A stretch of DNA of 64,000 nt. It comes from Owenia fusiformis. Taxonomy: Eukaryota; Annelida; Polychaeta; Sabellida; Oweniidae. Shown piece after piece: positions 24,687 through 61,841 of this stretch (within the stretch, counting starts at the first letter, position 1; every line of letters starts with the position of its first letter). The notes under the pieces were generated by a model. It worked only from the letters and a program-made list of their open reading frames with translations, searched no databases and had not been told where the DNA came from. The DNA lies in assembly GCA_903813345.2 (NCBI GenBank), contig CAIIXF020000010.1, positions 21,463,181 through 21,527,180 on the forward strand, read 5' to 3'. Made by a program: the position numbers and the translations under genes.

Positions 24687-25981
24687 ATGACGTCGAATTC
24701 ACCAAAGGGGGTCGATCTGGAAGCAGTACGAGCGTTATTGAGGAGAGGAGTTAGTGAACATAAAACACACGAACGCCGAAGGGATAGCGGAAAGAGAAAA
24801 GGTAACGGCATGTTAGGCAACACAGCAGCGATTGATATGCCGCTATCACAGTTTCCATGTTTAGAAAGACCTCCCGACATTGATATGCCAATAGCAGAAA
24901 TGGAAGTTGAAGAATTTGAAAAAAAGGTTCAGGATAATACAGAATCAATTAAACGTGCAATGGATAAAGTAAACGCAGGTTTGAGACAGAGGTCATCTTC
25001 ATTGGGCACAGACGATTATGACACTCATTTCGAGTTGAAAGGAAAATCGAAACGAGGTAATAAGGGTTTCAAAAGAGCTCAGTCAGTGAAATCGCGGATG
25101 CTTTCCAATCAATCGGCTGATCATAATTGCAACAATGGGCCTGTTAGCGGCAGCGCGTCATCGACTTCTCAACCGTCTGAGCCTCCTACTAATACAAACA
25201 ATAACGGATTGCCGAGTGATAGCACAACTGGGGTAGATAATCAGGGGACTAGGCAGAATGCCGGGGCGCCTCCAGAGGAAGAGAGCGCTAATAATACCCA
25301 AAGCCAACACCAGGAAAGTATAGCTAACGATACTTCTACTGCCAGTCAAAACGGAACTGTTCCCGGATTATCGAGTATTATAAGAAAAGCAATGGGAGCG
25401 GGTGGAAGCAGTTCGGGTGCTGCGGCTCGACCATCTTCTTTCATCAGTCAGAGGTTTGGGTCTATCAAGAGCCGCAAGCTACCCAGCTTTAAACTACAAA
25501 GGGTGCCTTCATTACCGGATTATCAGACTGCAACCAATACTAGGATTAACACACCCAGGACACTGAATGGACAAGATAGTCAACTTAACCCGACTATCAC
25601 TATAACAGTGGAATCGGACGATGAGTCAATCATGTCCGATTATATAAACCCAAATCAAAACTACAAAGACCCTAATATGATATCCCCAGTCGATATGTCT
25701 GGGAGTAAAAAGGATGGAATTCAGTTCATTGGGGACGAGGCATCCCTCTATGGGACCCCAAAAGAGGAATTACCTATCCAAGACGATGAAAGCAGTGCTA
25801 GTGACATCAAAGTTCACTCAGGGGGAAGTTTTCTTAGGGATCAAATAATATCGTTTTTCCAACCTTCTGTTGACAACAAGTTAGCCATGAAACTTTTTGG
25901 CAATAGAAGTGCGTTGATGCGTGAGAAACAACGACAGACAGCGGCTGGTAACTGGGTCATTCACCCATGCAGTAATTTCAG
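24687..25981 (+). CDS. HCN channel, coding exon 1: N-terminal tail and HCN N-terminal domain
   Basis: Encodes residues 1-431 plus two bases of codon 432 (Arg) of a hyperpolarization-activated cation channel, a plasma-membrane protein carrying Na+/K+ pacemaker current. The ATG at 24687 is the first in-frame ATG after the stop at 24621 and has A at -3. Residues 1 to about 375 are hydrophilic, rich in Ser, Asn and Gln, with basic patches and phosphorylation-type motifs (RQRSSS, KRAQS, LQRVPS). A charged, possibly coiled segment lies near residues 65-95. Residues 379-432 are the conserved HCN domain, starting GGSFLRDQIISFF and including LAMKLFGNRSALMREKQRQT and AAGNWVIHPCSNFR. The exon ends AG, followed by the donor GTAAGT (phase 2). 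The long N-terminal tail is variable in this family and I recognise nothing specific in it. Confidence 0.93.
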
Positions 25982-26038
25982 GTAAGTTCAGTGAAAAATA
26001 CGTCATCTCATCCCATCACCAATAACTGGAGACGAACT

Positions 26039-49607: not shown

Positions 49608-49771
49608 GTTTTACTGGGATCTGTTTATGCTAATCCTGCTTATCGCAAACTTGATAATCCTGCCTGTAGCCATTTCTTTCTTCAACGATGATCTCAGTCC
49701 GAGGTGGATTGTGTTCAACAGTGTATCCGATACAGTATTCTTACTAGATCTAGTCATCAATTTTAGGACAG
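49608..49771 (+). CDS. HCN channel, exon 2: S1 and S2
   Basis: 164 bp. It follows a good acceptor (TTTCTTTTCAG) and ends at the donor GTATGT. The split Arg codon from exon 1 is completed by the first G. It encodes residues 433-486 plus one base. The first part, [20 protein letters not shown] then AISFF, is transmembrane helix S1. NDDLSPRW is the S1-S2 loop. [20 protein letters not shown] is S2, which includes the acidic residue found in voltage-sensor S2 helices. The match to the HCN family is close and continuous with exon 1 (HPCSNFR-FYWDL in one phase), which confirms the 23.6-kb intron. Confidence 0.95.
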
Positions 49772-55075: not shown

Positions 55076-55243
55076 GTGTCATAGCCAACGATTTTGCAGA
55101 TGAAATTATATTGGAACCAAAAAGAATAGCAATACACTATTTGAAGACTTGGTTTGTCCTCGATTTGGTTAGCTCATTGCCGCTCGACTATATTCTACTC
55201 ATATTCTCTCCTGATAATAATTACAATCAACTAGTCCACGCAG
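55076..55243 (+). CDS. HCN channel, exon 3: S2-S3 loop and S3
   Basis: 168 bp between the acceptor TTTCCAG and the donor GTGAGC. It opens by completing a split Gly codon (phase 1) and ends again with one base of a Gly codon. Residues 488-542: VIANDFADEIILEPKRIAIH is the S2-S3 region, where mammalian HCN has a comparable IILDPKxIxxxYLK stretch. YLKTWFVLDLVSSLPLDYIL then LIF is helix S3, with the conserved Asp residues of WFVLDLVSSLPLDY. SPDNNYNQLVHAG begins the S3-S4 linker. The open frame runs on both sides into the introns, but protein similarity stops exactly at the splice sites. Confidence 0.95.
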
Positions 55244-56173: not shown

Positions 56174-56280
56174 GTTCCATACTCAGAGCAACCAAACTTC
56201 ACAAACTTATAAGAGTCATTCCCCTTACAAGATTGCTGCGTCTATCTCGTCTTGTACGATACTACATTCACTGGCAGGAG
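56174..56280 (+). CDS. HCN channel, alternative exon 4a: variant S4 voltage sensor
   Basis: 107 bp, completing the split Gly codon and encoding 35 further residues, ending in phase 0. It carries SILRATKLHKLIRVIPLTR followed by [16 protein letters not shown]. Basic residues occur every third position, as in S4 of voltage-gated channels. Compared with exon 4b it has three more residues at the N-terminal (S3-S4 linker) side. It has Pro where 4b and mammalian HCN have the Ser that interrupts the basic series, and Gln where the family has the first Glu of WEE at the start of the S4-S5 linker. Splice sites are weaker than those of 4b: the acceptor ATTATTGGTAG is poor in pyrimidines and the donor is GTCGGC. 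The open frame and conserved C-terminal half argue that it is a functional alternative exon, not a relic. Inclusion together with 4b would shift the frame. Confidence 0.88.
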
Positions 56281-56979: not shown

Positions 56980-57077
56980 GTCGTGCTCTGAGAGTATTTC
57001 GATTGGTCAAACTGCTCAGTTTGCTGCGTTTGCTCAGGTTGTCGCGTCTAGTGCGATACGTGTCACAATGGGAGGAG
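56980..57077 (+). CDS. HCN channel, alternative exon 4b: canonical S4 voltage sensor
   Basis: 98 bp, completing the same split Gly codon and encoding 32 residues, ending in phase 0. It begins [16 protein letters not shown] and continues [16 protein letters not shown]. The pattern of basic residues every third position, interrupted by a single Ser, is the same as in mammalian HCN S4, and YVSQWEE matches invertebrate Ih channels as I remember them. The acceptor (ATCTCTGTCCATAG) and donor (GTAAGC) are both good. It lies 699 bp downstream of exon 4a. I take it as the default voltage-sensor exon. Confidence 0.95.
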
Positions 57078-60000
57078 GTAAGCGGGGTTAGGACCTTTCT
57101 GTTTTTCGCATTCACACTCTCCTACTGACAGCACACCCCTGTCACAACCACTGGAGAGTGCATACACAGCTCCTTGCAGTTTCATGATCTACCCATACTC
57201 AGAGCTTTGAGTGTTGTGAACACATTATATCCTATATCTAGTATACCCGCTGGTCACTTCTGACCTCCTTCTTTACCCTACATAGATGGAACATTCCCTT
57301 TTAATATGTCATCGTTCTCCCTGGCCTTGTCAACAATATTTAACCATGTTATATCAAAGTAAGGTTGCTAAAACATCTAGATAAGGCTCCTTATTCACAA
57401 CGTCGTAAAATATTGTTGATATGCTTTATTCACTGGTTTAAACTCACATTCACATATTTTTAAGCATTGAATGCCGTGTGCTATGGGAGAATGTCATGAT
57501 TTTGTACAAGCATGTATAACTGCCTTTCATATTGTTGTACGTACCATTTGGGCTCATCTGCTTGATGTTCAAAATATGAATATGGTGTTCCATCAAAAAC
57601 AGGTCTATTCTTGTCTAAACTGTTCAACTATCATAATGTCAACATTGATGTCGTTGGCTGTCTATATGTGTAACATGAAACTGCAACGGGGCCTTATCCA
57701 CACATAAGCACGCTTTTAGTATAGTATGCCAAGTCAAGAAACCAATGCCAAAAATTATTAAACTAATGCTTAGCTAATGAATAGTCATAGCATTTTGGAG
57801 AACTCATTAATGTAAGTATAAAACTAAAATATAGACATTACTAGTGCGGCATGCGTATGTTTAATCATTTATGATTATTTAACCTATTTAGTACTTCTAT
57901 TTATACAATTCCTAAATTAATAAATATATATTAATGAAATATCTAACAATGTATATAATGTGCAATATTAAATAGATGATATAACAGAAAATACCTTTTA
58001 CAATTCTATTGCTTTATCTATTGATTCTCTCATTGATTGCTTTACCAAACTATGCTAATTTTATTTGAAATATTTTAGTTAAAATGATAAAATAAAAGCA
58101 TTTAAATCCTTTTAAATTCCCATATTTTATCCTTTTTATTAATATAAGTGTTGATAACTTTATATCGGTATAATAACCTTATCCCGGTTTCTACTCCTAC
58201 TAACCGTTTTATACCCTTGGTTACCTACTATCCCTTCTAACCAACCCTTATAACCGTGATTTGCTTTCTGGAAAAGGGTATGCTTTTCACTGTTTCTAAT
58301 ATAAGAACCTTAAAATTCGCCGTGCGGTTGCCGTAGTAAATGTGACTGCAAAAGCATCTGACCGCAGAAATTCTAATTTTCTTTTAGACAAACCTCAATC
58401 TTGACATGTTTTTTCTTTCTTGACCTTACTTTGTTCTGAAGAACTGAACCACATGCAACTCATCATATATTTTGCTTTTTGCCATGTTTTTATTGTGCAG
58501 CAAATACACATGAAATGCATTATTGCGCAACCGAATACCATTTTGCATTATATTCAATTTTGCAAATCATCTGTTTTTATTTCTTAGTTTTTACATTATA
58601 GTGTGGAAAACAAAAAATAGGAATTTTGGGAATGTGTGCAGGAAGCATTTTCTTACACTTTGAAAACTCAGGCAATGCTCGTATGTGTAAACTGGGAAGT
58701 TGCATACCCTTTTCTTGGAACCTTATGTAACCGTGTTAGTACCTTCAACTACCTACTCTACCCCAAATAACTGTAATACCCTTGACTATCCAGTGACGAA
58801 AGTTTAGACCAGGTTTGTTTCACCTCTTTCTAATCGCTAATTTCAACTGCATGTAACACATTCCAAAACGCATTTGTTAGCCAAACTTCTAAAATATCTA
58901 GACAACAGTTAATGAACGACAATGATTATGCCGACAACGTGGCTTTGGCAGGAGATTGGAATGTGTTAAAAGGCAGAACGCTTGTAGAGCATTGTCATTT
59001 CACTAAAGTCATGTAATCGACCTTGATTCTTGATGACTTACAAATCAGGACCATATATGCACGGCAAGTTCAGAAACATACGCTTTCTAGTGATCTAAAG
59101 CCTACTAACACTTGCACAACATTACAAATACACACACAAATCACTCCTTGTTAATATTCTCATCCGAAATGTACGCGATATATTTTTGCATATTGGACTG
59201 AATTATAACAAAGTGTGCACACCCAATACTACACCAACTCTAAATGTACATTCTCTGCCATTGCCAGTTATATACGTCAAGTTTTCGTAGCGGTATTAAC
59301 AATTACCTTTCGTTCACAAGAAGGCTATTAGTGACATATGAAACTAATAGCAAGCACTATAAGGCAGAAAATGTAAATTTGGCGTTTATTTTTTAAATGT
59401 CAAAATCATATATGTAAAGTTTAGACGTTAAACTTAAAAGTTTAGATGTTAACGCGCATATTAATATGGAATTTTGTTATAGTTGGCCTTAAACATGCGC
59501 ACGCACAATCAGGTACTTCATACTGAGTAGGTTAGATAGAAGTGGATGCTATAAGCGAGAATATGCATCGTATCCAGAGGAAATCATAACAAAACATCAT
59601 TGCTTTACTATCTTTGTAAAATGTCCTTGATAATATTACTGTTATGTTACTATTACTTCACAAAAAAGGACACGATCATAAGAAGTTAAAGCTTTGAGGT
59701 TTCTGGTAATAAAGGAGTTATCACACCACTTATCAGATTACTTTTTCTTTTTGCCTTTGCAATATGATATTTTATTCCATGTATCTTTGCACCTCTGATT
59801 TATTTCATACACAGTGAAGTGTGGTCGTGGAAAGGCACATGGAATAGAGACATTGCCTAAAGAAATGTGTACCAATTTTATCCTGCTTTTAAATATTAAA
59901 TTTTGTTACGTTATTTGAGTTTGTTCACTTTGCAGATGTTATAGCACGTGGCCTTATTTCATTATTTGCCAAGTAGATAGTTATATAGACTTCAACCATT

Positions 60001-60798: not shown

Positions 60799-60945
60799 TT
60801 TATCAATTTTGGTATGTTTATGCGAATCTTCAATGTGGTATGTTTGATACTGCTACTTGCCCACTGGGCGGGGTGTCTGCAGTTTTTTGTGCCGATGCTA
60901 CAAGGTTTTCAACCAGATTCATGGGTTGCAATAAATGAACTACAG
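60799..60945 (+). CDS. HCN channel, alternative exon 5a: S4-S5 linker, S5 and start of pore region
   Basis: 147 bp, 49 codons, phase 0 at both ends, between TTATCTTTCCAG and the donor GTAACT. The translation starts [12 protein letters not shown] (S4-S5 linker into S5), followed by [20 protein letters not shown] (S5 and the conserved HWxGCLQ motif) and [17 protein letters not shown] (start of the turret and pore loop). It keeps the Arg of FMRIF that corresponds to the conserved S4-S5 linker Arg of mammalian HCN channels. It is the first of two tandem versions of this exon, 746 bp upstream of 5b. The pore helix and selectivity filter must lie in exons beyond this window. Confidence 0.93.
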
Positions 60946-61691
60946 GTAACTGAAAAAACAATGTCACCTGGGTTCCCTCTTCCTGTTGCCAGCTGTCACG
61001 ACAGCGTGCTCGACTTCTACCATTGCAGCACAGCTTATATCAGTAACATGTTCCTATGCAGTTCACTCACACACACGTGTACCAGTTACCAATCAGAATA
61101 TTTTTCACAGACTGTCTATTTGGTTGTCTGTTCTAGTAGAAACCAATCAAATTGGAAAATTTACATGGCATCAGATACACAGACGTGAGAGTAAACAAAG
61201 CTTAGCTTTAAACATCTTGCATTTGTGTACATAGAGTTATTTCTAATGAGTGTTGTATTATGCATGGCTAGTTCAACATAGATGCAAGGGGTTTCAACGT
61301 AGCTGCATGAACAAGTGATATTCTCGAGACTACTGATATGATAAAATGTATTTCAACCAGAGAATATCCAAAGAACGCCAAAAAACGTAACAAAATGAAT
61401 TTTCGGGTAAGGGTCAATTATGTGAAACATTGCTGTGCTGGTGATGTTACAGAAAACGAGTTCGCTCAGCAATCATTCGTGGTGTATGGTGAAGTAAATG
61501 TTCACGACCTACAAAAAATCTTTGCACAAAATCTGAACTACATATAATCAGTACAATTCATGTACTGACTAATGTAGCACCGATTTGGTAATTTACGTTT
61601 TTGCAAAGGTGTTTTGTATATCAATATTGTAGATGCCTTTGTTTCGGAGTAGAAGCATGTCTGTACTGTATGTGCCTTTACATCTTTACAG

Positions 61692-61841
61692 TTTCTCAAC
61701 TACGCAGGCATGTTTATGGGATTTTTCAACTTAATATTACTGATGTTACTCCTGGGGCATTGGAACGGTTGCTTGCAGTACCTCGTGCCTATGATCCAAG
61801 ACTTCCCCTCCAACTCATGGGTTGCCATTAATGAATTAGAG
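61692..61841 (+). CDS. HCN channel, alternative exon 5b: variant S4-S5 linker, S5 and start of pore region
   Basis: 150 bp, 50 codons, phase 0 at both ends, between CATCTTTACAG and the donor GTACGG. The translation starts [13 protein letters not shown], followed by [20 protein letters not shown] and [17 protein letters not shown]. It is one residue longer than 5a in the linker and has Gly where 5a and the family have Arg (FMG-FF against FMR-IF). In the pore-entry part (QDFPSNSW) it is closer to other HCN proteins than 5a is. Use of both 5a and 5b in one mRNA would keep the frame but duplicate S5, so a one-or-other choice is expected. Confidence 0.92.

What the first reader, a model, noticed from the sequence alone, without database searches (positions are those of the whole stretch)
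60799..61841. A second pair of alternative exons, for S5 and the pore entrance, directly after the S4 pair
Exons 5a (147 bp) and 5b (150 bp) both encode the S4-S5 linker, S5 and HWxGCLQ, with good splice sites and phase 0 ends. With two S4 exons this allows four combinations of voltage sensor and coupling/pore-entry module. I do not recall two consecutive duplicated cassettes covering S4 and S5 in an HCN gene. That is a statement about my knowledge, not a search result.
Basis: partly seen in the sequence, partly recalled or inferred. Interest (0 to 1): 0.85.

Follow-up and report, generated by a model that had tools for sequence, protein, structure and literature searches.

The report
Swappable S5 exons in pacemaker channel
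One pacemaker (HCN) channel gene of an unnamed animal carries two alternative versions of the exon linking its voltage sensor to its pore, directly after two alternative voltage-sensor exons, and the versions differ at residues known in mammals to hold the channel shut.

Summary
Confirmed: exons 5a (60799-60945, 147 bp) and 5b (61692-61841, 150 bp) lie in tandem in one HCN gene, both phase 0-0, with good splice sites, 31 of 49 aligned residues identical and dS too high to compute. They follow the S4 pair 4a/4b. Searches found two S4 and two S5 exons in this gene but one S1-S2, S3 and pore exon. By phase, any 4x-5y join stays in frame. Both or neither S4 exon gives early stops; both or neither S5 exon stays in frame, so S5 exclusivity, if real, needs RNA-level control, not identified here.

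Most likely function: exon choice tunes how firmly the gate is held shut. 5a keeps the arginine of the closed-state salt bridge (HCN1 R297-D401); 5b has glycine. 4b keeps the glutamate at HCN2 E324; 4a has glutamine. Against this, 5b may keep the third coupling residue (Tyr331) where 5a has Phe.

A second HCN-like gene (C7) has two pore exons, 37 bases apart, with Asp or Asn at the bridge position.

No transcripts were available. Drosophila Ih splicing also varies here: a new variant of a known kind.

The parts
25848..25981 (+). HCN N-terminal (Ion_trans_N) coding stretch up to its donor; the exon start was not determined
   Evidence: PF08412 match E 1.1e-19 at C10:21489028-21489159; donor CAG|GTAAGT at 25982
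49608..49771 (+). S1-S2 exon, one match in this gene
   Evidence: the genome search lists this copy and the C7 paralog
55076..55243 (+). S3 exon, one match in this gene, ends in phase 1
56174..56280 (+). S4 exon 4a (107 bp): [36 protein letters not shown] with the G completed by exon 3; Pro at HCN1 S264, Gln at HCN2 E324 (positions by my count)
56980..57077 (+). S4 exon 4b (98 bp), the conventional HCN version, ends WEE
60799..60945 (+). S5 exon 5a (147 bp, phase 0-0); keeps the Arg of RIFN (HCN1 R297 / HCN2 R339)
61692..61841 (+). S5 exon 5b (150 bp, phase 0-0); Gly in place of that Arg
59820..59853 (+). candidate intron element complementary to the 3' splice region of 5b; unproven
   Evidence: 5 of 100 shuffles reach the score and five intron pairs were tried
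61657..61690 (+). 3' splice region of 5b, partner of the candidate element; unproven

Best explanation
5a and 5b are two old, functional, tandem alternative exons of one HCN channel gene; normally one of them is joined between an S4 exon (4a or 4b) and the single pore exon. Their choice changes how firmly the channel is held shut while the voltage sensor is up. 5a supplies the arginine of the salt bridge (S4-S5 linker/S5 to end of S6) that stabilises the closed gate; 5b supplies glycine. 4b supplies the coupling glutamate after S4; 4a supplies glutamine, and a proline in mid-S4. Shown: the exons, their frames, selection on both, and the residue differences. Inferred from mammalian and sea urchin HCN mutants: 4b-5a would close tightly, 5b forms would leave a leak at rest, and 4a-5b would be the most weakly coupled. 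Also inferred: exclusion of 5a and 5b by an RNA-level mechanism not found here.
For: Same borders and phase, splice sites, selection. Genome-wide: two S5 exons in this gene, one in the C7 gene; one S1-S2, S3 and pore match in this gene. The S4/S5 exon border falls after the same EE in the C7 gene. The two joins scanned of four (4b-5a, 4a-5b) both pass the Ion_trans_N, Ion_trans and cNMP_binding cut-offs. Residues: HCN1 R297 aligns with R in 5a and G in 5b; D401 with D in exon 6. HCN2 numbers are HCN1 plus 42, as fixed by R339/R297 and D443/D401, which puts E324 at the first E of WEE and at Q in 4a (my count). Published roles, read as passages: E324, Y331, R339 and the R339-D443 bridge (PMC3439648; PMC3406610; PMC9085832); R339E minimum open probability 43.3% (PMC11050684); R297-D401 stabilises the closed state (PMC11189445).
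Against: No transcript shows either exon in use. Double inclusion or skipping of the S5 exons stays in frame. At the third published coupling residue, HCN2 Y331 (HCN1 Y289), one printed alignment places a tyrosine of 5b (FLNYAG), where 5a has phenylalanine (FINFG), so on that residue 5b would be the conventional form; the linker here is 4-5 residues shorter and the placement uncertain. The functional data seen are for Arg to Glu or unspecified changes in other channels, not Arg to Gly here. HCN channels are reported to gate fairly normally without the S4-S5 linker (PMC11050684). The best RNA pairing is not significant once the five intron pairs tried are counted. 4a has a low donor score and the poorest acceptor of nine.
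Confidence: 0.64

Rival explanations
1. Both S5 exons are real alternatives, but the difference mainly tunes something else, such as the outer pore (HWAG versus HWNG, LQGFQPD versus LQDFPSN), trafficking, or S5 packing, and the Arg-Gly change is incidental or offset by the Tyr-Phe change nearby.
For: 18 of the 49 aligned residues differ, spread over linker, S5 and the outer stretch. Over 39 residues both exons share 23 with human HCN1. 5b may keep the Tyr of HCN2 Y331 while 5a has Phe.
Against: The arginine reported to lock the closed gate is among the differences, and the neighbouring S4 pair differs at another residue of the same published set.
Confidence: 0.25
2. One S5 exon (or 4a) is a relic that is no longer spliced in, kept open by chance or by very rare use.
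For: No RNA data. 4a has donor GTCGGC (score 5.8) and 10 of 18 pyrimidines before its acceptor, the fewest of nine acceptors.
Against: Both S5 exons keep intact frames, good splice sites and a codon-position pattern of purifying selection at a synonymous distance too high to compute. A low donor score does not disqualify 4a: the donor taken for the first CNBD exon scores 5.1.
Confidence: 0.07
3. The exons are not exclusive: some transcripts carry both or neither S5 exon, giving a subunit with an altered topology, perhaps dominant negative.
For: 5a+5b and the skip form both stay in frame. The 746-base intron between them is long enough to splice (general knowledge).
Against: A second S5 in tandem, or none, would upset the topology of the pore; I recall no HCN channel of this kind.
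Confidence: 0.04

Closest known systems
Drosophila Ih (DmIH) splice variants
   Same: One invertebrate HCN gene whose transcripts differ around S4: N-termini and the lengths of the S3-S4 and S4-S5 loops (PMC4382183 passage); S1-S3 common to all (PMC3344876 passage). 4a also adds three residues on the S3-S4 side.
   Different: The passages read do not mention duplicated S5 exons or a change at the closed-state arginine. The primary paper (Gisselmann 2005) is not held.
Spiny lobster PIIH splice variants
   Same: Its title says channel properties are modified by alternative splicing (seen only in reference lists).
   Different: Which exons vary could not be read; it may well include similar pairs.
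Mammalian HCN1-HCN4
   Same: Domain set, S4 charge pattern, CIGYG filter and closed-state Arg-Asp pair in the 4b-5a form.
   Different: Mammals have four HCN genes (PMC5323408 passage). Between WEE and RIFN human HCN1 has four residues more than 5b and five more than 5a (my count).
Mutually exclusive voltage-sensor exons in Nav and Cav channel genes
   Same: Tandem duplicated exons around S3-S5 tune gating (recalled).
   Different: Those are four-domain channels opened by depolarisation (recalled).
Sea urchin SpHCN2
   Same: GFG filter (PMC5356907 passage), as in exon 6b of the C7 gene.
   Different: Concerns the second gene, not this finding; orthology not tested.

Membership tests
HCN channel family | Ion_trans_N, Ion_trans and cNMP_binding domains in one protein | tested here: met
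   Two of the four joins were scanned; all three domains pass the cut-off in both
HCN channel family | CIGYG selectivity filter and HCN-like S6/C-linker start | tested here: met
   Exon 6 in L001
HCN channel family | Closest solved relatives are HCN channels rather than CNG, EAG or plant channels | tested here: met
   Best HCN chain E 1.2e-49, best CNG chain E 1.1e-9 for the 5a+pore query
HCN channel family | Opens on hyperpolarisation and is modulated by cyclic nucleotides | not testable with these tools
   Needs expression
Mutually exclusive exon pair | Tandem homologous exons with equal phase and borders | tested here: met
Mutually exclusive exon pair | Both copies under purifying selection | tested here: met
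   Codon-position pattern; 0 of 2000 simulations
Mutually exclusive exon pair | A built-in block to double inclusion (frame, short intron, or RNA pairing) | tested here: inconclusive
   S4 pair: frame block yes. S5 pair: frame no, short intron no (746 bases), RNA pairing 5 of 100 shuffles with five intron pairs tried
Mutually exclusive exon pair | Exactly one copy per transcript | not testable with these tools
   No RNA data held

The most novel reading that the evidence does not exclude
In this animal both HCN-type genes found put the closed-state lock of the channel under exon choice, each from the opposite side: the C10 gene swaps the arginine (5a Arg, 5b Gly) while its aspartate is constant, and the C7 gene swaps the aspartate (pore exon 6a Asp, 6b Asn) while its arginine is constant. 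With the S4 pair, the C10 gene would give a graded series from tightly shut pacemaker channels to near-constant leak channels.
Probability: 0.27. Interest if true: 0.75.

Novelty: new variant of a known kind. Interest (0 to 1): 0.55.

Why it matters
How the HCN voltage sensor holds the gate shut is still debated. Natural exon pairs that swap residues singled out by mutagenesis would be a natural experiment on coupling strength, and would show how an animal with few HCN genes can make channels ranging from pacemaker to leak. The prediction is specific (minimum open probability lowest for 4b-5a, highest for 4a-5b) and can be tested in oocytes.

Tried and rejected
A splicing-factor switch by TGCATG: two sites lie in the 5a-5b intron (61261, 61304), but about 8% of 746-base stretches of the gene have two or more, so this is not evidence.

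A looping RNA structure: the best complementarity between introns 4b-5a and 5a-5b (59820-59853 with 61657-61690) covers the 5b acceptor and is reached by 5 of 100 shuffles. The best matches of the other four intron pairs were reached by 70, 97, 27 and 12 of 100. Duplex energy is -30.3 against 5b, -13.8 against the 5a acceptor, and -26.5 against a nearby stretch of the same intron. In the tile scan another tile of the 5a-5b intron scored -29.3, while the best tile near the 5b acceptor scored -24.9. Kept only as a lead.

Recent duplication or assembly copy: rejected, since nucleotide identity is 0.667 over the aligned S5 codons and 0.475 over the S4 codons, and dS could not be computed.

Which S5 exon is ancestral: undecided, both share 23 of 39 residues with human HCN1 and 24 of 39 with each other.

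Structure prediction was not run. A published S5 exon pair in an HCN gene was looked for in the listings (20 of 48, 20 of 21 and 20 of 117 papers listed; the others listed in full) and in passages of some of those papers, without success; most subscription papers are missing.

On re-reading the calls before this submission I added the Tyr331 counter-evidence and lowered best explanation from 0.68 to 0.64 and novel case from 0.30 to 0.27; two rivals rose (0.22 to 0.25, 0.06 to 0.07).

Full report
What is there. The window ends inside an HCN channel gene on the + strand that runs at least 5.5 kb past it (CNBD matches at C10:21528897 and C10:21532563-21532700; L001). The N-terminal HCN domain, S1-S2, S3, two S4 exons, two S5 exons, and outside the window the CIGYG pore exon, C-linker and CNBD follow in order.

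Is it more than chance. 5a and 5b find each other first after themselves in the 498 Mb genome (E 1.1e-14 and 7.1e-15); the next match is the S5 exon of a second HCN-like gene on C7. On 49 aligned codons 31 residues agree; changes by codon position are 15, 7, 27; none of 2000 random placements of as many changes keeps as many residues; dN is 0.205 and dS could not be computed. Donors CAG|GTAACT and GAG|GTACGG score 8.7 and 9.1 with recalled donor frequencies, reached by under 0.7% of GT dinucleotides in the 72 kb; pyrimidines before the acceptors are 15 and 13 of 18. The S4 exons agree at 17 of 33 residues, with 0 of 2000. 4a has donor score 5.8 and 10 of 18 pyrimidines, a level that 41.5% of AGs reach; the donor taken for the first CNBD exon scores lower still, 5.1.

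Copy number. Queries with S1-S2, S3 and pore exons list one copy in this gene. Queries with 4a, 4b, 5a and 5b list two copies each in this gene. So only S4 and S5 appear doubled, in the order 4a-4b-5a-5b, which fits two separate exon duplications better than one block copy (inference). G000 searches score only the best candidates, so a diverged third copy is not excluded.

Frames. Exon 3 ends in phase 1, S4 exons run from phase 1 to phase 0, S5 exons are phase 0-0. By phase, every 4x-5y join is open. 4a+4b before 5a, or exon 3 straight to 5a, meets stop codons; 5a+5b, or 4b straight to exon 6, stays open. The S4 pair is therefore policed by frame, the S5 pair is not.

What the choice changes. 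HCN1 R297 aligns with the arginine of 5a and with glycine of 5b. Its partner D401 aligns with the aspartate of the single exon 6. Papers read in passages say this pair stabilises the closed gate (PMC11189445; HCN2 R339-D443 in PMC9085832, and PMC3439648), that mutations at HCN2 E324, Y331 and R339 raise minimum open probability (PMC3439648; PMC3406610 for Y331 and R339), and that R339E channels have a minimum open probability of 43.3% (PMC11050684). HCN2 numbers equal HCN1 numbers plus 42 at both ends of the salt bridge, so E324 is the first E of WEE; 4a has glutamine there (my count) and proline at HCN1 S264, a mid-S4 residue used for cross-bridging in the activated state (PMC11189445). So 4b-5a looks most like a standard HCN channel and 5b forms should leak at rest.

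What speaks against that. One alignment puts a tyrosine of 5b on HCN1 Y289 (HCN2 Y331), where 5a has phenylalanine, so at that residue 5b would be the conventional form; the linker is 4-5 residues shorter here and the placement is uncertain. No isoform has been expressed, the mutants reported are not Arg to Gly, and PMC11050684 says HCN gating survives loss of the linker.

The second gene. The C7 gene has, in the searches made, one S4 exon and one S5 exon with the arginine (ILDIDASVIRIFN), but two pore/S6 exons: 6a C7:9974790-9974566 (GYG) and 6b 9974528-9974304 (GFG), 225 bp each, 37 of 75 residues alike, above all 2000 simulations (maximum 35), with 37 bases between them. An intron of 37 bases is very probably too short to splice (general knowledge), so these should exclude each other. 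6a keeps the aspartate, 6b has asparagine. Two genes thus vary opposite partners of one salt bridge. With two cases this may be coincidence, since both exon pairs differ at many other places; the C7 exons have low donor scores (5.2 and 5.5), and the C7 S3 match includes a TAG that may be its acceptor and was not resolved.

How exclusion might work for 5a/5b. The intron between them is 746 bases, so not too short. The best intron pairing covers the 5b acceptor but is not significant once five intron pairs are counted, and another stretch of the same intron pairs about as well. No mechanism is shown.

Known or new. Drosophila Ih has variants in N-termini and in the S3-S4 and S4-S5 loops (PMC4382183) and potentially at least 12 isoforms sharing S1-S3 (PMC3344876). 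Lobster PIIH splicing changes channel properties (title only). The papers with details are not held. The listings showed me no report of duplicated S5 exons in an HCN gene; this is weak evidence. I file it as a new variant of a known kind.

Noticed in passing
L002 / G000:C7:9974790-9974566 and 9974528-9974304 (minus strand): The second HCN-like gene has two tandem pore/S6 exons, one GYG with Asp and one GFG with Asn at the closed-state Asp position, separated by only 37 bases, which should force a choice between them.
   Followed up: partly
56174-56280: S4 exon 4a has a low-scoring donor (GTCGGC), the poorest acceptor of nine, a proline at the HCN1 S264 position and three extra residues at its start; it may be the regulated member of the S4 pair.
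   Followed up: partly
59768-59853 and 61657-61690: An intron stretch (59820-59853) can pair with a nearby stretch of its own intron (-26.5) or with the 5b acceptor region (-30.3), which could act as a competing switch; statistics are weak.
   Followed up: partly
61261 and 61304: Two TGCATG motifs in the 5a-5b intron; not enriched beyond the gene's background.
   Followed up: yes
G000:C10:21151475-21152095: Two cNMP-binding domains in one open frame of 380 aa about 310 kb before the window start, the arrangement of a PKA regulatory subunit (recalled).
   Followed up: no
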